From: a virus
IMG/VR virus record: IMGVR_UViG_3300030117_004487
Coordinates: 1 to 48,923 of that record
Reading direction: 5' to 3' (one strand)
Length of the DNA: 48,923 bases
Shown: piece by piece, positions 2,777 to 47,622 of the stretch
Position numbering within the stretch: position 1 is the first letter of the stretch
Layout: every line of letters starts with the position of its first letter
The notes under the pieces: model-generated
What the model was told of the DNA's origin: nothing
Database searches by the model: none
What the model saw: the letters and a program-made list of their open reading frames with translations, nothing else
Program-made: the position numbers and the translations under genes

Positions 2777-4701
2777 AAGTCAAGTGGATCGAAAAGAACG
2801 ACAATCCGTTCTATCCATTGCCCGCTGACTACAACGAGCTGGATGCAGACGGACAAAGACAAGCACGTGTAAATGCGTGTCGTCTTTGGTTGTGTCCTGG
2901 TCGTAGCTCTGAAGAGATAGCTGAGTCGTTTACTACTTCCGTAAAATTCTTTGACTTATTCTATCTCTGTCCCGACCATGAAGTTGATTTCGATCCGTTG
3001 TTCTACGACGACGAACCGTTAACTACGCCAACTTTTCACTTTGACATATTGAGGTCTTGGGCATCAAACAACAGAAACATAACCATCGCACCGCGTGGGT
3101 CAGCAAAGTCGTTCCTCGTCCGCAAATCCTGCCTTCTGAGAATGCTGGCTCGACCGATGTACACGATCTTGTACGCGACATCGACGAACGACAATGCAAA
3201 GGGGACAGGGCAGGCACTCAAGGATCAGTTCCTCCACAACCAGAGAATACTGGACGACTGGTCACCGGAGTTCCCGGACGGTCGAATTGCCCCCCGTCGA
3301 GGAGAGGCCCCTTTCGGAACTGAGATGATGCAGCTCAAGAATGGTTCTTGGCTGCGTGCAATCTCTGCTGAAAGTCGTCAGCGTGGTGGTCGCCCCAGAC
3401 GCTATGTGCTGGATGACCCCGAGTACGATCCGAAGGCATCTACATCGATGTCAATCATTCGTCAGTACATGGACGATCTGCTGTTCAAGATCGTGCTGCC
3501 GATGGTTATGCGTAAAGGCTGTGGCGTTGATTGGCTGGCGACCTTCGTGTCTCGGCGTCACTACGCTTGGCATGCGTTGCAGACGGAGGAGTCTACTAGT
3601 GGGGAAAGGGTCGCTCAAGACCCGAGGTTTAATCTGTGGTCGAGAATGATCGTCCGTGCAGCCTACGAAGATGACGATGGGGTCATGCAGAGCTGTTGGC
3701 CCGATATGTGGCCAGCCACCAAGGCAGAGAAGACAGACGATCGTGTGTCCCTGGAAGAGATCAAGGACATCATTGGCACTGCCAACTTCTTGGCTGAGTA
3801 CATGGCCCGACCGGGAGAATCGGGTGAGTCGTACTTCGAAGCCCTGACAAAAGTCAAGCATGGGTGGTGGATTACACGAGCTGATGAGTATCTAGAAACA
3901 TCTCCTAGGCACTCGAATGCTGAGATCCACTGGTGTGTTGACGGTGAAGAGACGCGACTGCCCATGTCCGAGTTCTTGAATGGTGCAAGGCTCTTCATGT
4001 CTGTAGATACCTCGTACACATCTACCACTGACTCGGACTTCAAAGTGGCCTGCCTAATGGCTGCGGACTCAAACAACGATTTGTTTGTCCTAGATATGTG
4101 GAGCGGTCAGTGCCAGGAAAGCAGGCTAGTTCAAGAGATCTTCAAGATGGCGGACAAGTGGAAGTGCCCTACTATCCACCCTGAAACCATCAAGCAGGGC
4201 ATTGGGCTGTTCCATAACATCGAATCAATCATCAAAACCAGAGCACTGGATATGGCTGGGGTAAGCCATCTGCCTGCAGTCAAGAAGCTCAACCCCGGCA
4301 TGATTGACAAGTCTTCCAAGATCTCATCTTTGAATCTGAGGTTTGAACACGGGAAGATCAAGATGCCTTTGTGGATGAAGAACAAACCACAGTGGGCACG
4401 ATTGTTTGACCAGATCGAGCAGTTCAACCCGGATGCCAAGGACGGGGGACTGCAGCACGATGATGAGCTTGACTGTGTGGCAATGAGCCAGTTTATCTTG
4501 AGAGGCCGCGTCAGGGCTCAACAACGAGACCCTGACGCGATTGATAACCCCATTGATTCTCTGAAGGCTGGACAGATCCACGACTCTTCGGGGAACCCTA
4601 TTGCGTTCGGCGTTGACTGGAGAAATGTCTCTGCGTCGGACATATTGGACATACTGGACAACCACATAGAAGGGAATGAAGATGGAAGAACACGGGTTTG
4701 A
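2773..4701 (+). CDS. terL: terminase large subunit (packaging ATPase-nuclease)
   Basis: The motor that cuts concatemeric DNA and drives it into the prohead. The start at ATG 2773 (ATGA overlap with the previous gene) gives 642 residues; an in-frame ATG at 2734 is less likely. Seen in the sequence: a Walker A variant APRGSAKS at 106-113 (Lys112), Walker B RYVLDDPEYD with Asp214-Asp215, and a C-terminal RNase H-like nuclease whose first Asp is D412 in FMSVDTSY, followed by LFVLDMWSG and a closing acidic HDDELD before SQFILRGR. Length and domain order fit phage TerL. One copy of the dispersed motif (3595-3607) lies inside the gene. Confidence 0.92.
   Translation: MKVKWIEKNDNPFYPLPADYNELDADGQRQARVNACRLWLCPGRSSEEIAESFTTSVKFFDLFYLCPDHEVDFDPLFYDDEPLTTPTFHFDILRSWASNNRNITIAPRGSAKSFLVRKSCLLRMLARPMYTILYATSTNDNAKGTGQALKDQFLHNQRILDDWSPEFPDGRIAPRRGEAPFGTEMMQLKNGSWLRAISAESRQRGGRPRRYVLDDPEYDPKASTSMSIIRQYMDDLLFKIVLPMVMRKGCGVDWLATFVSRRHYAWHALQTEESTSGERVAQDPRFNLWSRMIVRAAYEDDDGVMQSCWPDMWPATKAEKTDDRVSLEEIKDIIGTANFLAEYMARPGESGESYFEALTKVKHGWWITRADEYLETSPRHSNAEIHWCVDGEETRLPMSEFLNGARLFMSVDTSYTSTTDSDFKVACLMAADSNNDLFVLDMWSGQCQESRLVQEIFKMADKWKCPTIHPETIKQGIGLFHNIESIIKTRALDMAGVSHLPAVKKLNPGMIDKSSKISSLNLRFEHGKIKMPLWMKNKPQWARLFDQIEQFNPDAKDGGLQHDDELDCVAMSQFILRGRVRAQQRDPDAIDNPIDSLKAGQIHDSSGNPIAFGVDWRNVSASDILDILDNHIEGNEDGRTRV
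3595..3607 (+). repeat. dispersed motif site 1
   Basis: ACTAGTGGGGAAA inside the terminase gene, read there as T-S-G-E. Top-strand orientation. Confidence 0.75.
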
Positions 4702-4993
4702 ACAGGTAGACTCTCGAAACTCAGTAGTGATACCTTTGGCCTTCTTTGATAAACTGCTAAAGTGTTACTATGGGAGCGGTCCCAGACACGAGGAAAAAGG
4801 TGTCCAGGCAGCCCAGGAAAGTCCTGCGGTAGAAGTGGTCAATACAGAAAGCCTAAGAGACCTGCAATTGAAGACTAGCCTCCCCGAGGGATACCAACCC
4901 AAGGGGGTAGCCCTCAGAAAAATAGAGACCAGAAATGCCGACAGATCAAATCAAGTTAACGAAGAACAAGAAGGCTCTGGCCAGAATCATTGA
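4676..4993 (+). CDS. hypothetical small protein between terminase and portal
   Basis: A 105-residue hydrophilic protein overlapping the terminase 3' end by 26 bp and the portal 5' end by 59 bp. ATG 4676 follows AGAAGGG. The N-terminal 35 residues include a hydrophobic helix VVIPLAFFDKLLKCYYG; the rest is polar and rich in Q, E and N. Overlap on both sides supports a real coupled gene. Function unknown. Confidence 0.6.
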   Translation: MKMEEHGFEQVDSRNSVVIPLAFFDKLLKCYYGSGPRHEEKGVQAAQESPAVEVVNTESLRDLQLKTSLPEGYQPKGVALRKIETRNADRSNQVNEEQEGSGQNH

Positions 4994-6974
4994 CCAACAT
5001 GCGGAGAGGGAGGAAAGCAGGCTCTCTTACCGCAGAACCACGTGGCTCCTCGCTTGGTACTACCTGAACGGTGCACGACGTTTTGACGTGTTTGACCCAG
5101 AGCACGGTAGTCTGCAGCCACACTATCTAGACGAAGAAGGCAATATGGAGTTCCAATCCCAGGAGCTCCTGTCTGCTATTGACCGTGTAACTGCACGGCT
5201 GGCTGCTGCTGACTTCATGCCCAGTGTCAAGCGCAAGAACAACAGCTTGACTGCAGTGCGTGACCGTAGTATTGCCCAGGTCATTTCAAACTCCCTGCTC
5301 TCTGCGGACCAGCTCGAGAAGGTCAAGTCCAAGTTCTGCCACTTGTTTGCAGCTCTTGGGTCTTGCGGTATCGCTGGTCACATTACAGATCACCCCACTA
5401 TTGGTCTTAGTGCTGACCTTGAGGTTATCCATCCTCGAGAGTTGTTCCCGTTCCCGAGCTTGGGTAACGACTACACCAAGGCCCAGGGACTGATGAGGCA
5501 GCGGTGTGTGCCTATCAGTTTCCTCAAGGATGTCTTCGGCAAGAAGATTACTTCTAACTTGAAGAACATGGAGTACTGGGAAAAGACCGCTGGCGAAAGT
5601 ATGGAAGAAGAGGATGAGTCAGAGTTCCCCGCAGGCTTGGATTACCAGCCTGGTAGTGGAGTTCCGGGTGTCCCTTCCAAGGCTGACGATGCAGTTGGTG
5701 TTGCAAAGATCCGAGAGCTGTGGCTCATGGACTCCCAAGACCTGGTATCCAGATACATCGTTACCAGTGGAGACTATGTAATCCACGATGAGGAGTACGA
5801 GGGTCTCGAGGTCTACTGCCCAATTGGATTCGCCAGGTTCATGGAGAACGGATCATTCCACGGTGCAGGCATGTTCGATCTGTTGTTCTCTATCTCACGA
5901 GAACTTGAACGGTTGATGAAATCCCTGTTCAACAACATCCGAGAGATTGACAAGTACGGCGTCCTGGTCATGCCCCAGGGACAGTTCAATGAGCGTGCAA
6001 TGCTCCGGGATGTGGGCAATGGGCTGAGGATGATTCCCTACGAGCCGGACCCTGTGTCCGAGGGGTTCCGTCCGTTTACTATCGCACCCCACAACACCGG
6101 TGACATCCCAGGCAAGACTGCGAGCTTTGCCAAGTCCATGATGGATGGTCTTAGCCCGGTACGTGATCTCATCGAAGAGAAGGGTCGTATTGACTCTGCT
6201 GCGGGACTCAACTTCCTTGATGAGGAAGTCAACCGTGCAATGACCAACCCTTCTCGTGGTGTGGACCAGGCATTCGGTTCTTGTTATCGATCCATGCTGT
6301 CCAGTGCCAGCCGGGTGATTATGAGCTCACCTCGTCCTCTGCCAATCTCAGACCTGACTTTGGATATGGCAGGAGTCATCTTTGACCCTGTCCAGGGCAC
6401 AGTGAGCTTTGGAGGTCAGAACCCCATCCCGAACATCAGCACTTTGCAGTTCAACATCATGTCCCGTACTCCGCGATCTGGTGTTGCTCGCAAGGCAGAA
6501 GCATTAGAGATGCTGCGTGCAGGACTTACAGATCCTGCAGGTCTGAAGATCCTTGCCCTGAAAGAGAACTTGGACTTTGCGGTATACATTGACGAAGAAA
6601 AGGCAGCGTACGAAAGCATCGTACGAAACTGCTTGATCTTGTACGGAGACGGCGAAACTCCTGGGGAGGTGGTTGTGACTCCACATACCGCCATGCCAGA
6701 AATGCAACTCAGGATCTTGGGGTCCTTCATGGCCAGTCCGGCTATGAGTATGTCTTCCCCACTTGTCCAAGACGAGTTTATGAAGTATCGTCAGTTCTTA
6801 TTCGATTCAATGGGAATGACACTGCCAGAGTCAGTGCCAAACCCGGACGACATGGCCTCTCTAATGCAAGTCGAGCAGGCCATGCGTGAACAGCAGATGA
6901 GGCTTGCACAAATGCAACAGGGAGGAGGTCCGGGCGGACCTCCAATGCCATTTCCTAATCAAGGAGTAGCTTGA
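4935..6974 (+). CDS. portal (head-tail connector) protein
   Basis: 679 residues placed between terminase and scaffold, the usual place of the portal, the dodecameric ring through which DNA enters and leaves the head. Visible features: an N-terminal helical region with RTTWLLAWYYLNGARRF, a mixed alpha/beta core with FPFPSLGNDYTKAQGLM and LFSISRELERLMKSLFNNIREID (long stem-like helix), and a Met/Gln/Gly/Pro-rich C-terminal tail (MREQQMRLAQMQQGGGPGGPP). Length suits T7-like or related podovirus portals. The gene ends in TGATG with the scaffold start. Confidence 0.8.
   Translation: MPTDQIKLTKNKKALARIIDQHAEREESRLSYRRTTWLLAWYYLNGARRFDVFDPEHGSLQPHYLDEEGNMEFQSQELLSAIDRVTARLAAADFMPSVKRKNNSLTAVRDRSIAQVISNSLLSADQLEKVKSKFCHLFAALGSCGIAGHITDHPTIGLSADLEVIHPRELFPFPSLGNDYTKAQGLMRQRCVPISFLKDVFGKKITSNLKNMEYWEKTAGESMEEEDESEFPAGLDYQPGSGVPGVPSKADDAVGVAKIRELWLMDSQDLVSRYIVTSGDYVIHDEEYEGLEVYCPIGFARFMENGSFHGAGMFDLLFSISRELERLMKSLFNNIREIDKYGVLVMPQGQFNERAMLRDVGNGLRMIPYEPDPVSEGFRPFTIAPHNTGDIPGKTASFAKSMMDGLSPVRDLIEEKGRIDSAAGLNFLDEEVNRAMTNPSRGVDQAFGSCYRSMLSSASRVIMSSPRPLPISDLTLDMAGVIFDPVQGTVSFGGQNPIPNISTLQFNIMSRTPRSGVARKAEALEMLRAGLTDPAGLKILALKENLDFAVYIDEEKAAYESIVRNCLILYGDGETPGEVVVTPHTAMPEMQLRILGSFMASPAMSMSSPLVQDEFMKYRQFLFDSMGMTLPESVPNPDDMASLMQVEQAMREQQMRLAQMQQGGGPGGPPMPFPNQGVA
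6754..6766 (-). repeat. dispersed motif site 2
   Basis: Bottom-strand copy ACAAGTGGGGAAG inside the portal gene; the top strand encodes S-S-P-L-V. One of two copies with AAG rather than TAG before TGGGG. Confidence 0.6.
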
Positions 6975-7885: not shown

Positions 7886-7900
7886 TTTGAGGAAATCCTA

Positions 7901-13176: not shown

Positions 13177-14129
13177 GACGCAACAATAAACAAGCAAACT
13201 ACAACCTAGATCCCCACTCCCTATTAGGCAAAAAGAATATCCCTTCTCGAACACCTGTTCGACAGGAGCCTAAAAGAAGGTCTGAGTTGGGGGAAATGTT
13301 GTTTGTTACTAAAGACTCTAGACGGATCTCAATGAACAATCAGTTTAAGGGACAACCCTTATTCTTGATTCTCAGTGGTCCATCCCTAAACAACTTAGAT
13401 CTCAATGAGATTACTCGAGTAGGCGCACTAAGCTTTGGGGTAAACAATAGCTGGTCTATATTCAAGCCTTTCTTCTGGACCTGTGCAGATAATCCAAACA
13501 GGTTTTTGTACTCCAGGTGGAAAGACCCCAACGTACTCAAGTTTTGTCCTCTCCCTCACAAGGGTGGGAAACTCCGAACTAAAGAAGGGGACCACTTTCT
13601 TAAGAGCGAGGAGACTCCCGAAGACTGCCCAAACGTATTGTTCTATCCTCGAAACCTTTACTTTGATCCTTGCCTGTTCCTCAAACAAAGCACGGTCAAT
13701 TGGGGAGGAGATTCCAAGAAGAGAGATGCTCTTGGGTTTAAGGGGGCTAGGTCTGTAATGTTTTCTGCTCTGAGAATAGCCCACATACTTGGGTTCTCTG
13801 ATATCTACCTATGCGGGGCCGACTTCAATATGGAGCAGGGTAAACAGAACTATGCCTTTGAACAGGATCGTGATGAAGGAGCTGTAAAAGGCAACAACAA
13901 CTCCTACAAAACAAACTCAAAAAGGCTAGAATCTCTAAAGGAAGTACTTCTAAGGGCAGGTACAAAGGTTTGGAACTGCAGTCCTACAAGCAATCTAGAC
14001 GCTTTTCCTTTCCTTCCATTCTCCCAGGCCATCAAGGCTTGCGAGAATTTGGTCCCCAAACAAGAGTCAAGCTTAGGCTGGTACGACAAGGTAAAGAAAA
14101 AGTCTCAACTAAAGGTTAAGAGGAACTGA
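13173..14129 (+). CDS. DUF115-like / MAF-flag10-like putative glycan or sugar-nucleotide enzyme
   Basis: 318 residues starting at TTG in a TTGA overlap with the previous gene. Signature segments are LFLILSGPSLNNLDL (about 62-76), FGVNNSWSIFKPFFWTCADN (about 87-106), and SDIYLCGADFNM (about 222-233). A GPSL loop, an NN-W-D-N segment and a GADF motif are the hallmarks of DUF115-type enzymes, related to motility-associated and lipopolysaccharide glycosyltransferases. It may add or change sugars on virion or host glycans. Its place between two tail genes suggests modification of tail proteins, which is inference. Confidence 0.6.
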   Translation: MRRNNKQANYNLDPHSLLGKKNIPSRTPVRQEPKRRSELGEMLFVTKDSRRISMNNQFKGQPLFLILSGPSLNNLDLNEITRVGALSFGVNNSWSIFKPFFWTCADNPNRFLYSRWKDPNVLKFCPLPHKGGKLRTKEGDHFLKSEETPEDCPNVLFYPRNLYFDPCLFLKQSTVNWGGDSKKRDALGFKGARSVMFSALRIAHILGFSDIYLCGADFNMEQGKQNYAFEQDRDEGAVKGNNNSYKTNSKRLESLKEVLLRAGTKVWNCSPTSNLDAFPFLPFSQAIKACENLVPKQESSLGWYDKVKKKSQLKVKRN

Positions 14130-14130: not shown

Positions 14131-17100
14131 ATGGCTAACGAGCTGAGTACCAAGTGGACATACCCGCTTACCATGGTAAGCCAAGATAAACGGGTACCTC
14201 TTCCAGGTGTGCTTGACGGATATGCTGGCGAGCTTTCTGGAGTAGACGGTTCTGTTCAGGGTGGACTTAGACCCTTCTCTGGATTCAAGACAGTCTACGA
14301 GCTCAACTTCTTTGCCAACTCAAACCACAACGAGAACTCGTTCGTTACTGATTTCTTCCCTGTCAACTTCAAGATCGACTTTGACTCATACGGGTACGGG
14401 TTTGTTTACCGTGCACAACGTCAGACCTCAGCTGCAACCGGTAGTGTCACCTTTGCCGAGAAAGCCTCTGACGGGGACAAGGTTACAACTACTTCCACAG
14501 ATGGCACGAAGAAGACTTACCGGGGATACAGTGGTTCTACTCACGGATATTCAACCGGTAGTACAGGCAAAGCAGATCTCCGATTCGAGTTCCTGAAAGC
14601 GGCTGCTATTGGAGGATCTATCCAGCTCGTTTCAGAAGATGGGTACACTCGAACCTATAAGGGGGTGGATGACGGTCGTGCTACCAATGGTGACTACGAT
14701 TCCACTGATGGCACCATTCTCTTCAATGTAGGTGGTACTGAACGTAGACTCATTGCAGACTCCCAAGAGCTAACCACTACAACCGGAACTGGGATCACTA
14801 CCTCAACCCCAGACCAACTGACTAGTGCTAGTGGGGAATCTGGGACAACTGGGACTGCTACTACTTCGACTGAGGGTCTGACAACTACTGACACAGACAC
14901 TGAAACTTTGGTGGGGCAGACTTACCAGGATTCTTTCCAAGACAGTAACTTCCAAGTTACCTCCTACTCAGGAGGTACTGGAACAGATGTTCCCGCAGAC
15001 GAAAGATATCTAGATACCGGTGATGGGTACCACCCAACTGCAGGCAGAACGACAAAGCCCCTGTCTACAATAAACATTGATTCGGTGACCAGTATTGACG
15101 GCAAGACTGTGATCTTTGCTGACGATACTAAAACCCACACTATCACCTTCGATGCTGCTAGAAGTAGAAACTCATCAGGGATTGCAGCTTCTACTACGAT
15201 TACCCAGATTGAGAAAACAGCAGCCACCCTTAATGGCAAGACGGTAATTCTCACAGACTACGAGAATACTTCCCACACAATTACGTTTGATAACACAATC
15301 AACAAGTCAGAGTCGGCAGCTTCTGCAACTCTGACGGTGGCTAATGCAACTTCTCTCAACGGTCTAAGCATCATCGTTGAGGATGCGGGTGACCAGACTC
15401 ATACTATTAGCCTTAGTACATCCGTTACCCAGGGTAATTCTACTACGACGGTTGCGGGAATCTCTGGAGCATCCACAACTCCAGAGGTTATGACTTCGAT
15501 CAAGAAGTCTCTCGAGCTTGCAATTGCAGCTGGGCTCATCAACATGACTGTCGAACAGTCTACTGGTTCACAGCTCAGGCTCACTATGGGGACCAAGGGT
15601 ACTACTGGAAACGGTAAGGTAATTACCGGTACTGCAGTCTCTGGTGCAAAGGTAACTGTTACCACCTTCTCTGGAGGTAACTCAGGCTCTACCCACAGCA
15701 AAGCTGGACTTGCCGACTCTGATGGCACCACCTTGTTTGCAGTCGAGTCACTGGCGGAAGCAATTAAGTTGGCTGTTGCAGCAAGCAAAATCAAAGTCAA
15801 CGTAGGAACACCTACCAGAACTGCAGCCTCTGCTACTTTTACATTTGGGGACACCGAGTTTGATGACCAGAACAAGGGTACTTGCACTCTTGTAGATGCT
15901 GCTGGTACCAGTCATACCTACTCCATCCGCAATGACTACTCAGCATCTACGAATGATGCAGCTGAAGCAAACTTTACTTTCCACACCTCTGACTACAACA
16001 GCGTAAACGATGCGTCTATCACACTTGTAGATACTGACGGACTTACGAAAACTTTTGTTGTTAAGAATGACTTTTCCGCTGCTGCGCGAGAAGCAGAGGC
16101 AGAGATTGACCTGGGAGACACGAAGTTTGACGATGTAAACTTTGCCGAGGTAACCATCACTGACGCAGTGGGTACTGGTAAGACCTACCGTATCCGTAAC
16201 GACTATGGTGCTACGACATCCAGCAAAGCTGTGATGACCTTTACCTTCGACGCTTCCAAGTTCAATACACAGAACAATGCAACACTGAACCTGGTAGATG
16301 CTGCTGGAACGGGTCGAGCATACAAGATCAAGACCGACTACTCAGCAGTAGATTCCCAGCAGGAGTTCAACGCTGGTGCGAGCTCTGATGTAGCTGCAGC
16401 AAACTTCGTAGCCATCGTCAACAGTGCGAATGGCCATAACGGTACTCTGGTTGCAACCGCTAGTGGCTCGACCGTGCAGGTAATTCAGAACACTGCCGGA
16501 GCGACGGGTAACACTACGATTACCCCTAGCTTCAATCCGTACTGGAACTCGACTACTAGTGCTGACGTTCCTTTGCAGTTCGTGGGTGGAGGTTCGGTGG
16601 AATTCAACGCGGGGGCAAACGCTGCGGCTGCTGCAGAGAACCTGAAGATTGCAATTAACAGCTCTGCTGGACATAACGGTACGATCACTGCTACCAGGTC
16701 GGGCAACATCGTGAAGATGGTTATGGGAACTGCAGGGTCTGCAGGCAATACCCCAATCACTACGTCGCATAACTACGACTTCAATGATGTGACTGATACG
16801 GCTCTCCCCACTAGTTTCGTTGGAGGAGACTACATCGAGTTCAATGCGGGTGCGAGTGCTAATGCAGCGGGGGATAACTTCGCGATTGCGGTAAATGCTT
16901 CTGGGTTGAAGATCGACGCGACTAACACTTCGGGAGCTGTTGCTTTAGTGCAGGAGGTGTCAGGATCTACTGGCAATACCTCGATTACCAAGTCTTCTTG
17001 GGATTCTGTTACCCAGGCTAACGCACCAAGTGCATTCAGTCGTGGAGGATTTGCAGAGTTCAACGCCGGAGCAAGTGCCACTACGGCTGCAACTAACTTC

Positions 17101-30096: not shown

Positions 30097-30615
30097 ATGG
30101 CACTTGCAGCAATCAAAGCAGGACTTAAGCAGATATCAGCTTTTGGTAACAAGGCTACCGGTTTTGCTACTGGGGTAGATGCCAAGAATATTCCCGGATT
30201 CATCAAAGATAATCCTGGGTTGGCTATTCCTGGAATGATTCTGGGTGCTGGTTTTGTCAAGGATGCTATCTATGATCCTATAGCTGCTTCCTTTACCACC
30301 AACTCTGCTGAAGACATGCAAGAGTTTGCGGCCATGAATGCGGATATCGCGTTTGGCATGCAGCAGCGGCAACAGCAGGCAATGAAGATCCAGAAGGAAA
30401 CTGCGAAACAGGCAGCTAGTCTTGCAGCTGTAGCCCCCCACTTGTACAATCAAATCCTGGCTGGGAGAACTTTGCCGCAGGGGGCACTGGTTCTCGGTGG
30501 TACTCCCCGCACAGATCTAATGGAACAACTAGCATTTGGAATGGCTAGTGGTAAGTTTAATCAACCCGACTCTGACACTTCAATGCTTGCTGCGATGGCA
30601 AGCGGACAACTCTAA
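30097..30615 (+). CDS. hypothetical helical internal protein
   Basis: 172 residues; its ATG directly follows the previous TAA. A Gly/Ala-rich hydrophobic stretch near 44-60 (GLAIPGMILGAGFVKDAIYD) may be membrane-active, followed by a Gln/Met/Ala helix (IAFGMQQRQQQAMKIQKETA). Composition matches the preceding internal proteins, and the close spacing puts it in the same transcript. No known family. Confidence 0.58.
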   Translation: MALAAIKAGLKQISAFGNKATGFATGVDAKNIPGFIKDNPGLAIPGMILGAGFVKDAIYDPIAASFTTNSAEDMQEFAAMNADIAFGMQQRQQQAMKIQKETAKQAASLAAVAPHLYNQILAGRTLPQGALVLGGTPRTDLMEQLAFGMASGKFNQPDSDTSMLAAMASGQL

Positions 30616-35032: not shown

Positions 35033-35796
35033 AGCCCGCAAAGTTCGTAGCAGTATCTTGCATACACGTACCACACCATAGAGAAGAAGTGCTTGACTGG
35101 CTTGTGTCCCGGTTAGAGGAGATCAAGCCCACCCATTTCATACTGTTGGGTGACCTCTTCGAGGCAGGCAGTGTTTCGATCCATCCTTCCGAATACTGGG
35201 AAACCTTGGAGCAAGAGTACGAGGCTGGTTCCCAGTTCCTAGAGACAGTACGCAAAAGCTTGCCCGAGGGTTGCGAGCTTGTCTGGACTTTGGGTAATCA
35301 CGATGACAATATCCAGACGCCCGACTCGCGTCGTACTAGTTGGTTGATTCGTTCCTTGATTCATTGGAACAAGAACCAGGAGTACGGTGAGGTCTTCCGT
35401 CGATGGAAGCAGATCCCATACGTGAAGGGTGCTCAGGGTGTATACCGTCTGGGTCCCTGTCGTTTCTACCATGGCTTCGATGCTGGCATGAACTCTGATG
35501 AGCTCGAGGCTCTGCAGATGGCGATGGCTTTGAAGGATCCGGGATGGGGGCTGTACGTACGGGGGCACACCCACCGTCCTACACCTGGTGTGATGCAGTG
35601 CAAGAGAACGGCCAAGGTTCTGCTGCCGTACTGGTATGCGAACCCCGGTACCCTCGGACCACTGAAGCCCGGCTACATGACCCGGAAGGATTCCAACCTC
35701 TGGGGAGCAGGACTAGTTAGTGGGGAATGCAATGTGAGTAGTCCTCGTAGGCCATCCCGAAAAGATTGGGATGCTTCTGTAGAACACTTTGAGTAG
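35029..35796 (+). CDS. calcineurin-like metallophosphoesterase
   Basis: I place the start at ATG 35029, in ATGA with the previous stop, rather than the in-frame TTG 35020; 255 residues. Motifs in order: VSCIHVPHH (9-17), LLGDLFEAG (39-47, Asp42), TLGNHDD (87-93), FYHGFDAG, and VRGHTHRP. This is the dimetal phosphoesterase set, except that the first ligand Asp of the usual DxH is Cys11 (CIH). Family members cleave phosphodiester or phosphomonoester bonds. The substrate is unknown; other phages carry similar enzymes in DNA or nucleotide metabolism. It is unusual to find it at the end of a virion operon. Confidence 0.82.
   Translation: MKPAKFVAVSCIHVPHHREEVLDWLVSRLEEIKPTHFILLGDLFEAGSVSIHPSEYWETLEQEYEAGSQFLETVRKSLPEGCELVWTLGNHDDNIQTPDSRRTSWLIRSLIHWNKNQEYGEVFRRWKQIPYVKGAQGVYRLGPCRFYHGFDAGMNSDELEALQMAMALKDPGWGLYVRGHTHRPTPGVMQCKRTAKVLLPYWYANPGTLGPLKPGYMTRKDSNLWGAGLVSGECNVSSPRRPSRKDWDASVEHFE
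35716..35728 (+). repeat. dispersed motif site 11
   Basis: GTTAGTGGGGAAT near the 3' end of the phosphoesterase gene, read V-S-G-E-C. Confidence 0.65.
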
Positions 35797-38265: not shown

Positions 38266-39156
38266 TTACTTAGCTGAAAGATACTGCTCCACAAAGAACG
38301 ACCACGAGTCGGTCTCTGGAAGCTGGATACGGTCTGGGAGATTGACACGACACTTAGTAATGCCTGCCAAACTCTCATCATTCACAGTGATGTAGTGCTC
38401 TTTGTACTTGACGGAACGAGGACGCTTGGGTCCAGGTGTGCCGTCCTTGTTGGTCTGCTGGACCATCTCAGTGCGAGCACCATGCTCACATTCAAAGGCA
38501 GCAACTAGTTCGAACAGCGGGAACAACCGCTTGTAGAAGTTGTCAGTGATTGTGAGTTCAGGTCGGATGACGTAGCGGTCATCACCAAGAGGGATCTTGG
38601 CGTTGACGATGTGGCATACGTAGAAGAATCCGTAGCCATGCTGTCTCAGTTCTGCAGGGAATCGAACCAGTTCCTCGTACACGTCATCCCATGCACGTCG
38701 GCCATCTAGTTCTTTCCACTCCTTCTTGCCCATCTTCTCAGTTACGTGTTGCTTGACGAGAGCAAGGGCAGGACCAAGACTGTCAACAACGATTGTCTGT
38801 GGACGAGGCTGATCTGCCTCTGCCATTTCAATCAGTTGCTTCTTCTTTTCAAGGACACTCTTCCAGTTCAACACGACGGGAGTAGACCCACCCGCAACCG
38901 GCGAACATGGACGCCCTTCCGAGTCCATGCCCGGCCAGATGCAGGCTTGGGGGTCTTTGTTGGTTGTACTTGAGAGGTCGGTATTGATGATGAATGCGTC
39001 GGGGTGTGACTGTATGAAACAGCTCTTACCTACTCCAGGCATTCCAACGAGTAGTCCAAACAACTTACCGGGTGGCGACACCATAGGTGTAGCATGAAAC
39101 CCGAGGTTGCCATACTTCTGACTGATGGTTTTACCCACCGCTAATTCCTGTTCCAT
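38266..39156 (-). CDS. Sak4-like RecA-type ATPase (AAA_24)
   Basis: 296 residues; start 39156 with GGAGG upstream. Walker A GMPGVGKS at 38-45 (Lys44), then a strand ending IINTD where Sak4 proteins have their conserved Asp, Walker B-like PQTIVVDSLGPALALV, and a sensor strand YGFFYVCHIVN. Length and spacing fit the Sak4/AAA_24 recombinases, single-domain RecA relatives that promote strand annealing with a partner SSB. The gene before overlaps it by 26 bp and the SSB-like gene follows, forming a recombination unit. Confidence 0.78.
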   Translation of the reverse strand: MEQELAVGKTISQKYGNLGFHATPMVSPPGKLFGLLVGMPGVGKSCFIQSHPDAFIINTDLSSTTNKDPQACIWPGMDSEGRPCSPVAGGSTPVVLNWKSVLEKKKQLIEMAEADQPRPQTIVVDSLGPALALVKQHVTEKMGKKEWKELDGRRAWDDVYEELVRFPAELRQHGYGFFYVCHIVNAKIPLGDDRYVIRPELTITDNFYKRLFPLFELVAAFECEHGARTEMVQQTNKDGTPGPKRPRSVKYKEHYITVNDESLAGITKCRVNLPDRIQLPETDSWSFFVEQYLSAK

Positions 39157-39494: not shown

Positions 39495-39527
39495 GAGGTG
39501 GTGGGTTCACACGAATCCCACCACCTC
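39495..39527 (-). promoter_or_regulatory. 11-bp hairpin abutting nuclease stop codon
   Basis: GAGGTGGTGGG (39495-39505) pairs perfectly with CCCACCACCTC (39517-39527), 11-nt loop. Its base touches the TAG of the nuclease gene and it is followed, going leftward, by the ribosome site of the next gene. Without a T-run it may be a processing site or partial terminator. Confidence 0.5.
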
Positions 39528-40747
39528 TACGCAGATAGATGTACTTCTACGTTGTCCCTGTCCTCCTGCTGGAACCCTTCTGTAGCAAGGATGGTCGGCC
39601 AGTCCCCTACCTCTGTGAGATAGAATGGAGCAAATGGACTGAGCTTTCCGAACTGCTTCAGATGGTTTGCAGACATTGGGAAGTTTCCTGGTGTTCCTTC
39701 TCGATTCGCGTATGAACGAATCAACTGCAGACGACCATGATAAGCCATCGTGTTTTGTTGGTCAAGGATGTTGACGCCAAACGTATGGGAAAAGTTGACG
39801 GGTGGGTCAGTTGCTCGAGCAGGCTTCTGATCTTCAAACTCACCAGTGCCAAGTATCCAACGCTTGCACCGCTCACGGTAGTTCTCATAACGTGGTTCGC
39901 CTGAGTACACACGTCGCTGTTCGATCTGTCCCTTGCGAGGTCCACGCTTTAGTTCATGGTTTACTATCTCGAAGTCACGATCGTTCATACCAAACTCAAT
40001 GGTTGGCTTTTGGAATGCAATGTGAATCATTCCTGCTGCACGTACATCTTCTGGCAGGTCGTACTTCTCTTGTACTGCACCTGACTTGATGAGCCAGTTC
40101 AGTATGTGTGTGTAGTGCTGCGTTTGAAACTCGATTGGACAGGTGCGAAGGCGATTGATTGTTGAGCCTGTGCAGGTCTTTGCATCCACGATGAACAATG
40201 CGTTTTGTTTCTCGTGGTACAGGAGCAAGTCAAACTGTGCCAGCATCTTCCCGTACTCGGGATGGTTGTACTCAGCAGTGATCTCTGAACCAAGAATCCT
40301 GAACCAGGGCTTGTTCAAGAAGTCAATGACTGATCCCTTGCTTGGCACTTGGAACTCCTGCATGGCTTCGAACCATGACAGGGCCATCAACATATCCTTC
40401 TCTTCTTGTTCAAGGATACGTTCTTTCTGTGCCCCAATGATCCCTTGTGATTTACAGGTTTCACTCAGGGTTTGTTGTGACTGCTTTAGCCACTGGGACA
40501 TCTCTTCAAATGCCCCTGCCCTAGACGATTGGAATAGCTCGAGCCTGCGGTGGAACCAAGAACCTCTACTCAGAGCAGCAGACCACCTCAGTGCCGACAC
40601 GATACCGAGGCGACGACTGAGGTAGTACTGGAACGGACAGGAGAGAACACTCTCATAGTCCGATGATCTGATTGAAGGTTTCTTGGCTACCAAGCCCTGG
40701 GTTTCGAGCCACTCTTTGGCTTCGATGCCTCTACCTAACTTGGTCAT
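39527..40747 (-). CDS. PD-(D/E)XK nuclease, RecB/Cas4-like
   Basis: 406 residues; start 40747 directly after TAAGGAGGAGGC. Family marks: SSDYESVLSCPFQYYLSRR at 28-46 (the S...CPxxYYL entry motif), SWFHRRLEL at 63-71, the catalytic core MLAQFDLLLY (Asp173), LFIVDAKTCTG (Asp188, Lys190), and FQTQHYTHI (208-215). This is the PDDEXK_1 plan of phage exonucleases related to RecB and Cas4. Only one Cys pair is seen, so an iron-sulphur cluster is not certain. Beside Sak4 and SSB it probably makes the 3' single strands for annealing. Confidence 0.82.
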   Translation of the reverse strand: MTKLGRGIEAKEWLETQGLVAKKPSIRSSDYESVLSCPFQYYLSRRLGIVSALRWSAALSRGSWFHRRLELFQSSRAGAFEEMSQWLKQSQQTLSETCKSQGIIGAQKERILEQEEKDMLMALSWFEAMQEFQVPSKGSVIDFLNKPWFRILGSEITAEYNHPEYGKMLAQFDLLLYHEKQNALFIVDAKTCTGSTINRLRTCPIEFQTQHYTHILNWLIKSGAVQEKYDLPEDVRAAGMIHIAFQKPTIEFGMNDRDFEIVNHELKRGPRKGQIEQRRVYSGEPRYENYRERCKRWILGTGEFEDQKPARATDPPVNFSHTFGVNILDQQNTMAYHGRLQLIRSYANREGTPGNFPMSANHLKQFGKLSPFAPFYLTEVGDWPTILATEGFQQEDRDNVEVHLSA

Positions 40748-41928: not shown

Positions 41929-41939
41929 TGTTATTTCCT

Positions 41940-42572
41940 TTAGCCGATGAACCGGCCAACAATCATTGCTGCAGTAGCATTGTCTGCTGCAGTCTGGACA
42001 GTGACGATTACTCGCTTGACCCCGTAGATCGAAACACGGCGAGGTACGCCCATCCTCATTCCTACTGCATCTCCACCGTCTGAGTCCAGGGCAGTTGTGC
42101 CAACTGGGAACAGATTGAAAAGGTTGCTTGCATCGACGGTTGTGTTGTCCGTCTGGTATTCGTGACTATCCCAGTCGACAAGGGGGATCCAGATACTGGA
42201 GTCATGTGCAGTACCGTCAGCCGAAGTCTGAGTCAGGTTGGCGTCATTGTCCTGCGGCCAGTTGCGGTTGTTGTGGAAGGAGTCGAGCTCACCGAAGACA
42301 GCAACGATTGGGCGGTCGGCGGTGGGTGCGGTTCCGTACCAAGCAAGGTTCAGTTCCAGGAAGAAACCCATGCTGGGTACAACGATTGGCTTGCACAGGT
42401 TGTTGTCATCGCCAGCACCATAGACCATCTTGCTCGGGTCCAGGCAGTCGGATGATGCAGTCTTTGCATCGGTCCACATGGTGAAGAGAGTGGAGGTGAT
42501 ACCTGATGAACCTGATCCATTGATAGGTTTGCCCAGTGGTGTGGGAGGGAGATAATCAGGAAGGATTGCCAT
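41940..42572 (-). CDS. structural-type beta protein in the replication block
   Basis: 210 residues; start 42572. All-beta in style with no export signal: FFLELNLAWYGTAPTADRPI, VAVFGELDSFHNNRNWPQD, VPRRVSIYGVKRVIVTVQTA, ending AAMIVGRFIG. Many Asp, Asn, Thr and Gly and a bias to C-ending codons suggest strong expression, as for the proteins at 7901 and 30628. A head decoration or receptor-binding role is possible, but it lies among small basic and membrane genes on the minus strand, away from the virion block. Not recognised. Confidence 0.5.
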   Translation of the reverse strand: MAILPDYLPPTPLGKPINGSGSSGITSTLFTMWTDAKTASSDCLDPSKMVYGAGDDNNLCKPIVVPSMGFFLELNLAWYGTAPTADRPIVAVFGELDSFHNNRNWPQDNDANLTQTSADGTAHDSSIWIPLVDWDSHEYQTDNTTVDASNLFNLFPVGTTALDSDGGDAVGMRMGVPRRVSIYGVKRVIVTVQTAADNATAAMIVGRFIG

Positions 42573-43077
42573 GTCGAAGAGCTCCGTTGATTAGCAGGCG
42601 TAGTGCCCATTCCCCACTAGCTCGTCTGTGGGATGCTGTTTGAGTTGGGAGTAGGAACAGTGTTATGCCGTACTCGTGAAGTAGTCTCATTAGTGCATCG
42701 ACTGCAGCTGCAGGTTCAGGCACATGCTTGGATACCTTGGTCATACCAAGGGGAGTTCCCTCCAGGAGGAGGACAGGATCTTCGCAAGAGTCCCTCATAC
42801 GTTTGAGGCAATCGACAAAGCGTGGCCTGTCTTTTCTGGTCAGGCAGTTTTGTGCGATCTCCCGGAGGGATCCCTTACGTTCAATCATGGTACATCCTTC
42901 GTATCCTCGGAGCAAGTAATCTCCCGTCTTCAGGGTTTCTTTGACCGTGTGTATACGGACAAGAACCGTCTTGCGTTTAGTGGGGAGAGAACTGTCGTCG
43001 AGGAGGCGGATGTTGCCGGGGAAGAGGAGAGGTTTCTTCTCTCTCGTATCCTGAATTATGGTCCAGTCCCTGTTCAT
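42556..43077 (-). CDS. ERCC4/Mus81-type nuclease domain protein
   Basis: 173 residues, start 43077 in ATGA overlap with the HTH gene; the end overlaps the beta protein start by 17 bp. The nuclease marks are IIQDTREKKP (Asp10, Arg12, Glu13), TGDYLL (Asp53), and the signature MIERKGSLREI (Glu66-Arg67-Lys68), where the canonical ERKxxxD has Glu in place of the final Asp. ERCC4 nucleases cut branched DNA; here it may resolve forks or recombination products. Confidence 0.8.
   Translation of the reverse strand: MNRDWTIIQDTREKKPLLFPGNIRLLDDSSLPTKRKTVLVRIHTVKETLKTGDYLLRGYEGCTMIERKGSLREIAQNCLTRKDRPRFVDCLKRMRDSCEDPVLLLEGTPLGMTKVSKHVPEPAAAVDALMRLLHEYGITLFLLPTQTASHRRASGEWALRLLINGALRHGNPS
42609..42621 (-). 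repeat. dispersed motif site 15
   Basis: GCTAGTGGGGAAT on the minus strand, read A-S-G-E-W in the ERCC4-type gene. Confidence 0.7.
42976..42988 (+). repeat. dispersed motif site 16
   Basis: TTTAGTGGGGAGA on the top strand in the ERCC4-type gene, 367 bp from site 15 and in inverted orientation to it. Confidence 0.6.
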
Positions 43078-43388: not shown

Positions 43389-43419
43389 GGTTGTAGGCTA
43401 GTCACCAACCAGGTTAGTG

Positions 43420-45720
43420 TCAAGCCACAAGCTCACAGTCATACTCGAGTGGGATGTGACGACCGTACAACTCTTGAAGCCAAGACCAGTACCCCTGGTC
43501 AGCTACGTAGGAGATTGCATCGGCAACCAACTCTTTGAGTTTGGGGATCATGTCCTTGTGACAATCAAAGTAGACAGCATCATAGATGTTGAGGAACATG
43601 AATGCCCGTTCCTTGCGTGCATTGAAAGCACTGACAGTCTCGTTGAGTCGTGCCTGGATACGCAGGAGTGTATTACCTGCAGTGGTTTGGATTGGGAAGT
43701 TGACAATCTCGTTCACGTCCCACTTGTCACCACCCATGAAGTAGCGTGACTGACCGGTGAACGGAAGGCAGATGTACCCATAGGTACGTGCTTCATTGAT
43801 ACGTTCCTCTTGCCACTTCCATAGACCAGGTCTGTGGTGTGGGCGTGAGTCAGCTACGTTCTTGAAGAACTCAATCGGATGCTTCTGACCAGTCATAGCC
43901 AGCAGCTGTGATTGCATTGTGGTGGAGCCAGACCTGAACAGGTCAGCAAAGTTAATCATCTTGCCCGCTTGTCGGAAGTCGTTGAACTTAGGGTGACTCT
44001 CAATGTCAGGCCCGAAGATTTGTAGAGCTCTCTGTTTATGGAGGTCAACGCCTTCTGAATAAGCAGCCATGAGTGCTGCATCTCCTGAGAGCAGTGCTGC
44101 GACTCTAAGTTCAATCTGGCTGAGATCGAATCCCAGTATGGAACCGTGCCTGCCGAAGCGGGACTGGATGCAGGACTTGATTGTCTTGGGGAATGTTTGG
44201 GCTGATGGTTTCTTGCAGGTGATGCGGCCTTGAAGTGTCCCGCCTTGGGATCCACCTGAGTCTTTGGCAAAGGTTGGGACGCAGTACCAGGTTGGGTAGG
44301 CGAACTCAACTGGGTAGCCTGACTTAGGGATGAGGACTGATGAACGGTCACTTGGATGGTTCCTGCGATGTCTGAGTAATGGGTAGCAATAGGAGGACAA
44401 GAGCTTCTGACTAGCAGCGTGTCTCTTTGCAAGCTTGAGTGCATTGCGCAGAGGATGGCTGTCAGGGAGAAGATCGGTAAGGAGGTTTCTGTTCTCTTCC
44501 GAGAAGGAGATGATCTTCTGCTTGGGGGTGACGGTTAGTAGCGGGTTGTCCCGAACAGATGTCGTATGCCCACATGAAGACAATGATGATCGAAGCTGCA
44601 AGTATGACTCGGGAGATTGATCTAACAACTCCATCAGTTTCTTGCATTGTTCTGTTGTATGACATTCGATTGTCCCGTCGATTACATCGCAAAGCAGATC
44701 GATGAAGGATGTCTTGGCTTTCCCAGATCCAGGGCCTTCCAGTAGGAGACCATACTTCTTGCTTGAGACTTCTCGACATCGTGTAATTCTTTCTTCCAAC
44801 TGATGCTCGATGCTGGACAGCATCCCTCTGCTCATGGGGATCCCAGACTCGGACATACGAATGCACGTCCAAATGGTATCGGAATAGAATTTCAAACACC
44901 ACGGTTCAAGTTTGTCTGTCCTTGGGAAGTCTTTACAGATACGCCTTGACAGTTCCTGCACTGCGAGCATGGTGTTGTGCGTGTCTTGTGCGTTGTAGGT
45001 AGCAAGGAGTGGGTCGGAGGGAGAAGAGAACTTCTCATCCTTGATGGTTCTGGTGTAGGAATGGGTGCGTAAAACTGGGCCCAAAGATTTCAGAGATTTT
45101 TCTGGACGGGTCTCGTCATGCAGATAGTTGAGCACTGACAGGTCGATCAGTAGCTGCGAGCCATCAAGAACGAAACGGAAGAAGGGATCAGCACGGAGAT
45201 ACTGGAGGTCAAACTGGAGGTTCATCCCCATTATCACGCATGAATGGGAACACCATTTGCGCAGTCTCTCCCTGTGCTCCGGCTTGTTCATCTTGAACAC
45301 CATCGTTTCGCCAGGCTGCAATGAGCTTAGAGATATCCACTCCCATGGCGTAGATGGCTTGGATGAGGAGAGCCACGGTTGTGAGTTCTGAGGAGTTGAG
45401 TGCTCCTGACTCACGTAGTTTCTGTGCTCGGTTGAGGATGTCTTGGTATTGGTTGTTGTCTTCAGCCATGTGTCTTCCTTCGGGATGGTGACTGCAACAG
45501 TCAGGATTGTGTCTTCCAATTTGACCCCGTCAGTATGGAGGGACCGGTTAGGATTGAAGACAGTCTGGTTGTTGAGTGATTCCCCACTAAAGTTTGTGTA
45601 GCAAGCACCGTAGGTCTCGATGTCGAGACTAATGATTCTTGGATCGGTACTTGTGCTCTCGTTCTTCCTCGAGGAGAGCAATCCTTCTTGCTGTATTCTT
45701 GATGTGGAACTTTGAGTCAT
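43420..45720 (-). CDS. family A DNA polymerase with 3'-5' exonuclease domain
   Basis: 766 residues. Exonuclease: SLDIETY (Asp33, Glu35), MNLQFDLQYL (Asp171), YNAQDTHN (Asp246). Polymerase: FDLSQIELR (motif A, Asp532, Glu537), RQAGKMINF (motif B, Arg583, Lys587, Phe591), and NIYDAVYFD (motif C, Asp714). Phe591 matches Pol I Phe762. Motif C reads Tyr-Asp-Ala where Pol I and T7 have His-Asp-Glu, so the second acidic residue is lost. Residues about 84-130, between Exo I and Exo II, are Ser/Thr/Pro-rich where another ORF overlaps. The start at 45720 overlaps the upstream gene by 92 bp; a later non-ATG start is possible. Confidence 0.9.
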   Translation of the reverse strand: MTQSSTSRIQQEGLLSSRKNESTSTDPRIISLDIETYGACYTNFSGESLNNQTVFNPNRSLHTDGVKLEDTILTVAVTIPKEDTWLKTTTNTKTSSTEHRNYVSQEHSTPQNSQPWLSSSKPSTPWEWISLSSLQPGETMVFKMNKPEHRERLRKWCSHSCVIMGMNLQFDLQYLRADPFFRFVLDGSQLLIDLSVLNYLHDETRPEKSLKSLGPVLRTHSYTRTIKDEKFSSPSDPLLATYNAQDTHNTMLAVQELSRRICKDFPRTDKLEPWCLKFYSDTIWTCIRMSESGIPMSRGMLSSIEHQLEERITRCREVSSKKYGLLLEGPGSGKAKTSFIDLLCDVIDGTIECHTTEQCKKLMELLDQSPESYLQLRSSLSSCGHTTSVRDNPLLTVTPKQKIISFSEENRNLLTDLLPDSHPLRNALKLAKRHAASQKLLSSYCYPLLRHRRNHPSDRSSVLIPKSGYPVEFAYPTWYCVPTFAKDSGGSQGGTLQGRITCKKPSAQTFPKTIKSCIQSRFGRHGSILGFDLSQIELRVAALLSGDAALMAAYSEGVDLHKQRALQIFGPDIESHPKFNDFRQAGKMINFADLFRSGSTTMQSQLLAMTGQKHPIEFFKNVADSRPHHRPGLWKWQEERINEARTYGYICLPFTGQSRYFMGGDKWDVNEIVNFPIQTTAGNTLLRIQARLNETVSAFNARKERAFMFLNIYDAVYFDCHKDMIPKLKELVADAISYVADQGYWSWLQELYGRHIPLEYDCELVA
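45209..45469 (-). CDS. overprinted ORF inside the DNA polymerase gene
   Basis: 86 codons in a second frame of the minus strand within the polymerase gene. ATG 45469 follows GAAGGAAGACAC, a good ribosome site. The product starts MAEDNNQYQDILNRAQKLRE and continues as a neat amphipathic helix pair (SSELTTVALLIQAIYAMGVD, ISKLIAAW), then an acidic tail (RNDGVQDEQAGAQGETAQ). Its codons (CTC, ATC, GCC, AAC) look like those of other genes here, whereas the polymerase frame over the same DNA is low-complexity Ser/Thr/Pro. A real nested gene is likely; role unknown. Confidence 0.6.
   Translation of the reverse strand: MAEDNNQYQDILNRAQKLRESGALNSSELTTVALLIQAIYAMGVDISKLIAAWRNDGVQDEQAGAQGETAQMVFPFMRDNGDEPPV
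45579..45591 (-). repeat. dispersed motif site 17
   Basis: TTTAGTGGGGAAT in the exonuclease part of the polymerase gene, read F-S-G-E-S in the gene frame. Confidence 0.7.
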
Positions 45721-46009
45721 CGGGTTTACCTGCCTCTACCCACTCACGGATATCTCGGTCCCCACTGTATGGGCTCGGGCAGAAGGGTAGCTTGATGAGC
45801 TGACCATTGCCATCCATGAGTGCAAAGTATCTCTTCTCATTGTCATCGTCGCGATCAATCTCGCTGACGAACGTTACGTAACGTCCCCCTTCATGCTCGA
45901 AGGGGTATGTCTCGAGGGCACGCTCTTGTTCTAGTGCCCTGTCCAACACATTTCTTTGTTGGTCTGTCATGCCCCGGAACATCCGTGTTCCCCCGTAGTA
46001 TGTAGTCAT
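45629..46009 (-). CDS. hypothetical protein upstream of polymerase
   Basis: 126 residues, start 46009 in ATGA with the previous stop. MTTYYGGTRMFRGMTDQQRN leads to a helix (RALEQERALETY), a beta segment (GGRYVTFVSEIDRDDDNEKR, YFALMDGNGQLIKLPF) and a charged helical C-terminus (ARRIALLEEEREHKYRSKNH). Soluble. The last 30 codons overlap the start of the polymerase ORF. No family recognised. Confidence 0.6.
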   Translation of the reverse strand: MTTYYGGTRMFRGMTDQQRNVLDRALEQERALETYPFEHEGGRYVTFVSEIDRDDDNEKRYFALMDGNGQLIKLPFCPSPYSGDRDIREWVEAGKPDDSKFHIKNTARRIALLEEEREHKYRSKNH

Positions 46010-46439: not shown

Positions 46440-46442
46440 GAG

Positions 46443-47141: not shown

Positions 47142-47169
47142 GGGTAGCTCCTTCCTTGGACTAATAGGG

Positions 47170-47622
47170 TTATGTCAGGTCGTCATGCAAGGCTTCGAGG
47201 TGTCTTACGATTCTCAGTTCTCGCACACGATTATCGAACCTGGTCTTGGGCCAGTTCTTTACTGCTACCTTGAGACCGATGTGATCTCTCAGGTCGTGGA
47301 GTGTGAGGCGGATCGGAACCTCACCTTCCTTGGTCCACGTGGACAGGTAGTAGTTACCTGCATCGAAGAATGCTTCGAGTCTGTAGATCCACTCGAGCAT
47401 ATTAGTGGGGGAAATATGGGACAGGTGCAGTTCAGAGGCAGCTACAATAAGACCTGAAGTCTTGGGACACATACGCATGACCATGCCAGTACCATCACCA
47501 GCAGGTTCCCATCCGTCATCACGGGTGAGTTTCTTAGAGGGCTCTGCATACTCCCAACAAATGATATCGGAGTTTCTGATGCCGCTGAGATCTGCTTCCA
47601 CACCATCCATTACTTTGCTCAC
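47170..47622 (-). CDS. hypothetical protein
   Basis: I place the start at GTG 47622, where GGAGG lies 8 nt upstream; in-frame TTG 47637 and ATG 47610 are alternatives. 150 residues, mixed alpha/beta: SDIICWEYAEPSKKLTRDDG, GMVMRMCPKTSGLIVAASEL, MLEWIYRLEAFFDAGNYYLS and a basic tail. No motif. It starts 16 bp from the divergent plus-strand gene, so both share an upstream region. Confidence 0.6.
   Translation of the reverse strand: MSKVMDGVEADLSGIRNSDIICWEYAEPSKKLTRDDGWEPAGDGTGMVMRMCPKTSGLIVAASELHLSHISPTNMLEWIYRLEAFFDAGNYYLSTWTKEGEVPIRLTLHDLRDHIGLKVAVKNWPKTRFDNRVRELRIVRHLEALHDDLT
47401..47413 (+). repeat. dispersed motif site 18
   Basis: ATTAGTGGGGGAA on the top strand, in the minus-strand hypothetical gene. 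An extra G as in site 14. Confidence 0.55.

What the first reader, a model, noticed from the sequence alone, without database searches (positions are those of the whole stretch)
3595..47413. Dispersed 13-bp DNA motif ACTAGTGGGGAAT at 18 sites
I found 18 copies by eye at 3595, 6754, 9588, 14827, 16803, 20644, 24705, 27433, 29027, 33643, 35716, 36368, 37718, 41197, 42609, 42976, 45579 and 47401. All share AGTGGGG, 16 share TAGTGGGG, and 11 extend to TAGTGGGGAA. A given 8-mer is expected about 1.5 times on both strands of 49 kb. Ten copies read on the top strand and eight on the bottom, with no relation to gene direction. Most lie inside genes, and they use different reading frames (A-S-G-E, L-V-G-N, L-P-T-S), so selection acts on DNA and not on protein. 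Spacing is mostly 1-5 kb. Candidate roles: binding sites for a phage nucleoid or partition-like protein, primase start sites, recombination signals, or marks that tell phage from host DNA.
Basis: seen in the sequence. Interest (0 to 1): 0.88.

Follow-up and report, generated by a model that had tools for sequence, protein, structure and literature searches.

The report
Chi-like DNA motif array in phages
This uncultivated phage and most of its relatives carry dozens of copies of a short G-rich DNA word, spelled slightly differently in each sub-group, that is kept by selection on the DNA itself and looks most like the Chi signals that tell DNA-chewing recombination enzymes to spare and recombine a molecule.

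Summary
Synonymous-codon shuffles do not explain it (16 genic copies; mean 1.3, maximum 6 in 1000). It is not peculiar to this phage. The window belongs to an uncultivated phage family, and about 70 of roughly 85 related contigs carry a clade-specific spelling: TAGTGGGGAA, cAGCGGGGAA, GAGTGGGGGT, TCAGTGGGGGT, GGCTGGTGGGG, aGTGGGGGGA, TCTGTCGGGG. Sites are conserved about three times better than comparable G-rich words, and some orthologous sites were respelled between clades. Copies lie in many frames, on both strands, independent of gene direction, and slightly evenly spaced. The same analysis of phage P1 returns host Chi with the same signature, and the cores AGTGG, AGCGG and GGTGG resemble known Chi cores. 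I read it as a Chi-like recombination or DNA-protection signal. Whether a host enzyme (RecBCD/AddAB type) or a phage protein reads it is unresolved.

The parts
3597..3606 (+). motif TAGTGGGGAA (in terminase large subunit gene)
   Evidence: position kept in relatives, respelled AGCGGGGA in G005
6755..6764 (-). motif variant AAGTGGGGAA
9589..9598 (-). motif variant AAGTGGGGAA, non-coding
   Evidence: identical 31-mer in G002
13210..13219 (-). weak site GAGTGGGGAT
14829..14838 (+). motif TAGTGGGGAA
16804..16813 (-). motif TAGTGGGGAG
20646..20655 (+). motif TAGTGGGGAA
24707..24716 (+). motif TAGTGGGGAA (full 13-mer ACTAGTGGGGAAT)
27434..27443 (-). motif TAGTGGGGAA
29029..29038 (+). motif TAGTGGGGAA (full 13-mer)
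30434..30443 (-). weak site AAGTGGGGGG
33644..33653 (-). motif core TAGTGGGG
35718..35727 (+). motif TAGTGGGGAA
36369..36378 (-). motif TAGTGGGGAA
37720..37729 (+). motif TAGTGGGGAA (full 13-mer), in the gap between convergent gene sets; equivalent site in G005 reads CAGCGGGGAA
41199..41208 (+). motif TAGTGGGGGA, non-coding
42610..42619 (-). motif TAGTGGGGAA, inside the ERCC4-type nuclease gene
42978..42987 (+). motif TAGTGGGGAG, inside the ERCC4-type nuclease gene
45580..45589 (-). motif TAGTGGGGAA, inside the DNA polymerase gene
45758..45767 (-). weak site CAGTGGGGAC
47403..47412 (+). motif TAGTGGGGGA
39527..40747 (-). stand-alone RecB/AddB/AdnA-type exonuclease (PD-(D/E)XK); possible partner of the motif
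   Evidence: Pfam PDDEXK_1; AlphaFold2 model pLDDT 91.7; best matches AdnA Z 14.9 and AddB Z 13.5, nuclease domains only; its tree needs the minimum 8 motif changes
38266..39156 (-). Sak4-like recombinase (AAA_24)
   Evidence: PHROG phrog_124, Pfam; its tree needs the minimum 8 motif changes
42556..43077 (-). ERCC4/XPF-type nuclease, present in every genome-scale motif-bearing contig whose replication region is covered
   Evidence: distance correlates with motif distance (rho 0.66) but its tree does not fit best
43420..45720 (-). family A DNA polymerase used to find the relatives; argued against as reader by contig L094
1..846 (-). SF3 (D5-like) helicase, cut by the window edge
   Evidence: the homologue in G005 hits DUF5906/D5_N/Pox_D5

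Best explanation
The motif is a dispersed, asymmetric, Chi-like signal of DNA recombination and protection. Dozens of copies per genome are read, probably on one strand as a helicase-nuclease or resection machine moves through from a DNA end, and switch it from degrading the phage DNA to sparing and recombining it. Shown here: the array, selection on DNA, clade-specific spelling, independence from transcription, and the likeness to the Chi array of phage P1. Undecided: whether that enzyme is the host's RecBCD/AddAB-type complex, with each clade spelling the Chi of its host (I lean to this), or a phage-encoded factor working with the phage's own exonuclease and Sak4 recombinase.
For: Rank-1 8-mer in the window and in most genome-scale relatives, 14-63 copies per genome, z 11-39. 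Genic counts 4-25 times above synonymous shuffles in all 19 genomes tested. Aligned motif 8-mers identical in 57% of cases vs 20% for other G-rich 8-mers at about 75% nucleotide identity; orthologous positions shared between clades 4.0% vs 0.43% in shifted controls, AGT/AGC clade pair 8/66 vs 0/365. Orientation is 65% on one strand whether the gene is + (213/112), - (101/55) or absent (93/50). Positive control: in the first 50 kb of phage P1 the known host Chi GCTGGTGG is the rank-1 8-mer, 27 vs 2.5, z 15.6, 15+/12-. Chi-rich phages are documented (PMC3784561). Known Chi sequences GCTGGTGG, AGCGG and GAAGCGG (PMC8022716) share the core (A/G)G(T/C)GG with the clade spellings AGTGG, AGCGG and GGTGG; clade E reads GGCTGGTGGGG and about 60% of its sites contain the exact E. 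coli octamer. The window encodes an exonuclease whose closest solved folds are the nuclease domains of AdnA and AddB and a Sak4 recombinase, and exonuclease and Sak4 trees fit motif class with the minimum number of changes.
Against: No host is known, so the decisive host test is missing. In the two phyla whose MAGs contain related viral contigs, AGTGGGGG is not over-represented (294 Planctomycetota, 284 Myxococcota genomes), and in the Myxococcales MAG nearly all copies of GTGGGGGGA sit in three contigs, one of them the viral contig L114 and two more that look viral by motif density; but these MAGs may simply be mis-binned. Scans of IMG/VR for motif pairs found dense arrays of the clade D and E spellings only in family members, which hints at a phage-encoded reader. 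Over-representation is stronger than reported for lambdoid Chi, and the motif is longer than Chi (10-11 bp with graded flanks). Strand polarity (65%) is only slightly above composition-matched words (60%), weaker than Chi on the E. coli chromosome.
Confidence: 0.5

Rival explanations
1. Binding sites for a phage-encoded, sequence-specific DNA-binding protein that works genome-wide (compaction, replication, packaging or self-marking) and co-evolves with its sites, with no Chi-like mechanism.
For: Dense arrays of the clade D and E spellings were found only in this family across IMG/VR. Motif distance tracks phage protein distances, best among widespread proteins for the ERCC4-type nuclease (rho 0.66; partial 0.47-0.66 against the widespread core families). 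Spacing is more even than random over the family (Stouffer z -3.9). Respelling is gradual between clades.
Against: No universal DNA-binding protein of this kind was found; the HTH protein is undetected in eight motif-bearing genomes; a replaced polymerase in L094 leaves the motif unchanged; host phylogeny would produce the same correlation; nearest-neighbour and parsimony tests do not single out ERCC4. The motif is asymmetric, unlike most dimer sites.
Confidence: 0.27
2. Recognition sites of a phage nickase, giving localised single-strand interruptions as in T5, phiKMV-like phages and phage tf, possibly as primers for the family A polymerase.
For: A conserved ERCC4-type nuclease with intact XPF motif is present throughout; no primase was recognised among the proteins scanned; tf has 14 sites in a 46 kb genome, and its relatives use a one-base variant (PMC3517423).
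Against: In tf all sites lie on one strand, whereas here 35% lie on the other. XPF-type nucleases are known as structure-specific, not sequence-specific (general knowledge).
Confidence: 0.08
3. Stoperators or dispersed operators bound by a repressor, as in cluster A mycobacteriophages.
For: Similar copy number (20-30), length (13 bp), asymmetry and clade-specific consensus (PMC6550527).
Against: Stoperators are oriented with transcription; here orientation is the same in + and - genes. No integrase or repressor was recognised among the window proteins searched.
Confidence: 0.04
4. Another host-derived dispersed word, such as a FtsK-orienting sequence (KOPS-like) or a DNA-uptake sequence copied from the host genome.
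For: G-rich, slightly polar, dispersed and mostly genic, like KOPS or uptake sequences (general knowledge).
Against: Polarity is barely above composition; no host with the word was found; no reason is known for a phage to need it at one copy per 1-2 kb.
Confidence: 0.06
5. By-product of codon usage, repeated protein motifs or base composition.
For: Ser-Gly-Glu/Asp is the commonest reading (7 of 23 sites).
Against: Synonymous shuffles, use of many frames and non-coding DNA, site conservation above comparable G-rich words.
Confidence: 0.01

Closest known systems
Chi sites carried by phages (P1, T5, some lambdoids), read by host RecBCD
   Same: Short G-rich asymmetric word, dispersed in genes on both strands, rank-1 8-mer in P1 at 0.54 per kb by the same pipeline; core (A/G)G(T/C)GG shared with E. 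coli, B. subtilis and S. aureus Chi.
   Different: Longer motif with 2-4 extra G and graded flanks; several spellings inside one phage family; over-representation stronger than in lambdoids (median O/E 2.3-3.1); host and reader unknown; the phages carry a Sak4 recombinase and an exonuclease.
Stoperators of cluster A mycobacteriophages
   Same: 20-30 dispersed asymmetric 13 bp sites whose consensus drifts between subclusters (PMC6550527).
   Different: Stoperators follow transcription direction; here orientation ignores gene strand and no repressor was recognised.
Localised single-strand interruptions (nick sites) of T5, phiKMV-like phages and phage tf
   Same: Dispersed short asymmetric consensus in a lytic phage genome, variant spelling in relatives (PMC3517423).
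   Different: Nick sites of tf are on one strand only; here 65/35.

Membership tests
Chi site (RecBCD/AddAB recombination hotspot) | Short asymmetric G-rich octamer-like word over-represented and dispersed in coding DNA | tested here: met
   same signature as P1 Chi
Chi site (RecBCD/AddAB recombination hotspot) | Sequence equals the Chi of the host | not testable with these tools
   host unknown; AGTGGGGG not enriched in two candidate phyla, whose link to the phages is only MAG binning
Chi site (RecBCD/AddAB recombination hotspot) | Strand polarity | tested here: inconclusive
   65.2% vs 60.0% in composition-matched words; P1 itself shows 15/12
Chi site (RecBCD/AddAB recombination hotspot) | Attenuates the helicase-nuclease and stimulates recombination | not testable with these tools
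   needs biochemistry
[quoted passage not shown]
   + excess is equal in + genes, - genes and intergenic DNA
Stoperator | Cognate immunity repressor and lysogeny genes | tested here: inconclusive
   none recognised among the window proteins searched with Pfam or PHROGs, but most proteins have no match
Localised nick site (T5, tf type) | All sites on one strand | tested here: not met
   10+/13- in the window, 407/217 over 19 genomes
Localised nick site (T5, tf type) | Ligatable nick in virion DNA at the site | not testable with these tools
   needs virion DNA
Binding site of the window's tandem-HTH protein | HTH protein present wherever the motif is | tested here: not met
   not detected by HMM in G012, G013, G015, G016, G018, G020, G021, G024

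The most novel reading that the evidence does not exclude
The phage family encodes its own Chi-like system: a phage reader, perhaps linked to its AddB/AdnA-type exonuclease, Sak4 or ERCC4-type nuclease, recognises the phage's own array and so tells phage DNA from host DNA during resection, recombination or packaging. Reader and array have co-evolved through at least nine spellings.
Probability: 0.25. Interest if true: 0.9.

Novelty: new variant of a known kind. Interest (0 to 1): 0.72.

Why it matters
[quoted passage not shown] If each spelling is the Chi of the clade's host, phage genomes become a direct way to read Chi from uncultivated bacteria, and the family is a natural series for studying how RecBCD/AddAB specificity changes. 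Either way it turns 'why do phages carry arrays of a short word' into a testable question with about nine matched motif and protein sets.

Tried and rejected
HTH protein 43074-43388 as reader: rejected as general reader, undetected in eight motif-bearing genomes. DNA polymerase as reader: L094 has a clade E set of genes with a foreign polymerase (27-32% identity) and keeps the clade E motif. ERCC4 nuclease as reader: best correlation but equal to the exonuclease in the nearest-neighbour test and worse on trees, so left open. Strong strand polarity: first looked like a Chi/KOPS sign, but composition-matched words are almost as polar. Host identification: no near or protein match of terminase or portal in the phage collection, polymerase only distant; genome scan found only viral-looking contigs in MAGs. 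Unrelated phages sharing the array: none for the D and E spellings in pair scans; the two hits for TAGTGGGGAA are a local coding repeat. These scans see only pairs within one 30 bp spacing class, so sensitivity is low. Chi reading by the phage exonuclease itself: the model matches the nuclease domains of AddB and AdnA, not the Chi scanner. A z-score above 11 is not telling in 10-15 kb contigs: some unrelated ones reach 14 with 5-8 copies; the claim rests on genome-scale contigs and on recurrence across relatives. Stoperator genomes L5 and Bxb1 as controls were not in the collection under the accessions tried.
Full report
OBSERVATION. The k-mer count confirms the finding. TAGTGGGG is the most over-represented 8-mer of the window (18 copies on both strands, 0.81 expected under an order-2 Markov model), TAGTGGGGA the top 9-mer (13 vs 0.23), TAGTGGGGAA the top 10-mer (11 vs 0.06). 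The exact 13-mer occurs three times. Synonymous-codon shuffles of the window's genes give at most 6 TAGTGGGG in 1000 trials against 16 observed. Copies sit in several frames and strands and in non-coding DNA.

RELATIVES. The window is an IMG/VR record with no near match among cultured phages; terminase and portal have no protein match there. It encodes a terminase, a family A polymerase, an SF3 D5-like helicase, a PD-(D/E)XK exonuclease, a Sak4 recombinase, an ERCC4-type nuclease and a uracil-DNA glycosylase superfamily protein. Searches with polymerase, portal and terminase found more than 90 related contigs; about 20 of them were fetched at near-genome scale.

MOTIF FAMILY. In most relatives a G-rich variant of the same word is the top 8-mer: clade A (window, G002) acTAGTGGGGAA; B (G005, G026, L011) cAGCGGGGAA; C (G008 and others, 38-41% GC) gAGTGGGGGt; D (G009, G010, G011, G014) atCAGTGGGGGT; E (G012, G013, G015 and others) gGcTGGTGGGG; F (G016, G017, G020, G021, G024) aGTGGGGGG(G)A; H (G018) TCTGTCGGGG; G019 cAGTGGGGGag; G023 tTGGGGGGAg; and a weak TTTCTGGGGGA in G022. 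G027, a distant member, has none. The near-complete genomes with a clear motif hold 14-63 copies. The spellings span 37-65% GC, so base composition alone does not drive them.

SELECTION. Genic counts exceed synonymous shuffles 4-25 fold in all 19 genomes. Within clades at about 75% nucleotide identity, 57% of motif 8-mers are identical in the aligned relative, against 20% of other G-rich 8-mers. Between clades, orthologous positions coincide in 4.0% of cases against 0.43% for shifted controls; for the AGT and AGC clades 8 of 66 against 0 of 365. In the terminase gene the window's TAGTGGGGAA is kept in G002, is AAGTGGGGAA in L008 and becomes GAGCGGGGAG in G005 while flanking bases diverge. Part of the between-clade coincidence may come from conserved protein where the spellings share a core.

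ORIENTATION AND SPACING. Over 19 genomes 65% of copies lie on the strand opposite to the polymerase gene, equally in + genes (213/112), - genes (101/55) and intergenic DNA (93/50). Composition-matched words already show 60%, so true polarity is slight. Gaps are more even than random (Stouffer z -3.9).

CONTROL. The same pipeline applied to the first 50 kb of phage P1 returns the E. coli Chi octamer as rank 1 (27 vs 2.5, z 15.6, 15+/12-). Bobay et al. 2013 (PMC3784561) show that phages lacking RecBCD inhibitors over-represent Chi, most strongly T5 and P1 types. Known Chi sequences (PMC8022716) are GCTGGTGG, AGCGG, GAAGCGG and others, most ending in GG; the phage cores AGTGG, AGCGG and GGTGG are the same kind of word, and about 60% of clade E sites contain the exact E. 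coli octamer. This likeness is suggestive and not proof, as all these words are G-rich.

WHO READS IT. Host side: AGTGGGGG is not enriched in 294 Planctomycetota or 284 Myxococcota genomes; those phyla were chosen only because MAGs assigned to them contain related viral contigs. Phage side: the HTH protein is not universal, the polymerase can be replaced without changing the motif (L094), and the ERCC4 nuclease correlates best by distance among widespread proteins while exonuclease and Sak4 fit best by parsimony on quick trees (8 changes, the minimum for nine classes; ERCC4 and polymerase 10, UDG 9). The exonuclease model (pLDDT 91.7) matches the nuclease domains of AdnA (Z 14.9) and AddB (Z 13.5, residues 767-1133), that is, the cutting part of such helicase-nucleases without the Chi scanner, which in AddB is the inactivated helicase domain (PMC4824097). 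Pair scans of IMG/VR found dense arrays of the D and E spellings only in this family, while some unrelated contigs show plain GCTGGTGG arrays. This leans towards a phage reader, but the scans are insensitive and hosts may be rare.

ALTERNATIVES. Stoperators are oriented with transcription (PMC6550527), which fails here. Nick sites of phage tf lie on one strand (PMC3517423), which fails here (65/35). Codon or protein effects are excluded by the shuffles.

VERDICT. A real, selected, family-wide Chi-like array with clade-specific spelling.

Noticed in passing
window 14131-25311: A single 3726-codon ORF (11 kb); the homologues have a median of about 1100 aa, and 2364 codons in G005.
   Followed up: no
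window 39527-40747: The stand-alone exonuclease is structurally closest to the C-terminal nuclease domains of AdnA and AddB, i.e. the cutting domain of bacterial helicase-nucleases without the helicase or Chi scanner.
   Followed up: partly
L094 5239-7149: A clade E phage contig whose family A polymerase has been replaced by a distant one (27-32% identity) while the neighbouring replication genes are clade E-like.
   Followed up: partly
L206 (5.3 kb), L225, L229, L230: Contigs without family proteins that have strong plain GCTGGTGG (E. coli-type Chi) over-representation, e.g. 13 vs 0.2 in L206.
   Followed up: no
L021 and L035 (G019): A second over-represented word, GCTGCGGTG, in two relatives; G019 also has AGTGGGGG.
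   Followed up: no
L114 (MAG Myxococcales NP1036), contigs C7, C18 and C72 of G028: Three contigs dense in GTGGGGGGA lie in one Myxococcales MAG, the third being L114 of this phage family; possible host hint or mis-binning.
   Followed up: partly
G005 46439-47320 and homologues in about 15 relatives: A widespread protein of about 290 aa, thought DUF932-like from memory only; Pfam gave no hit. Its distance also tracks motif distance (rho about 0.6).
   Followed up: no
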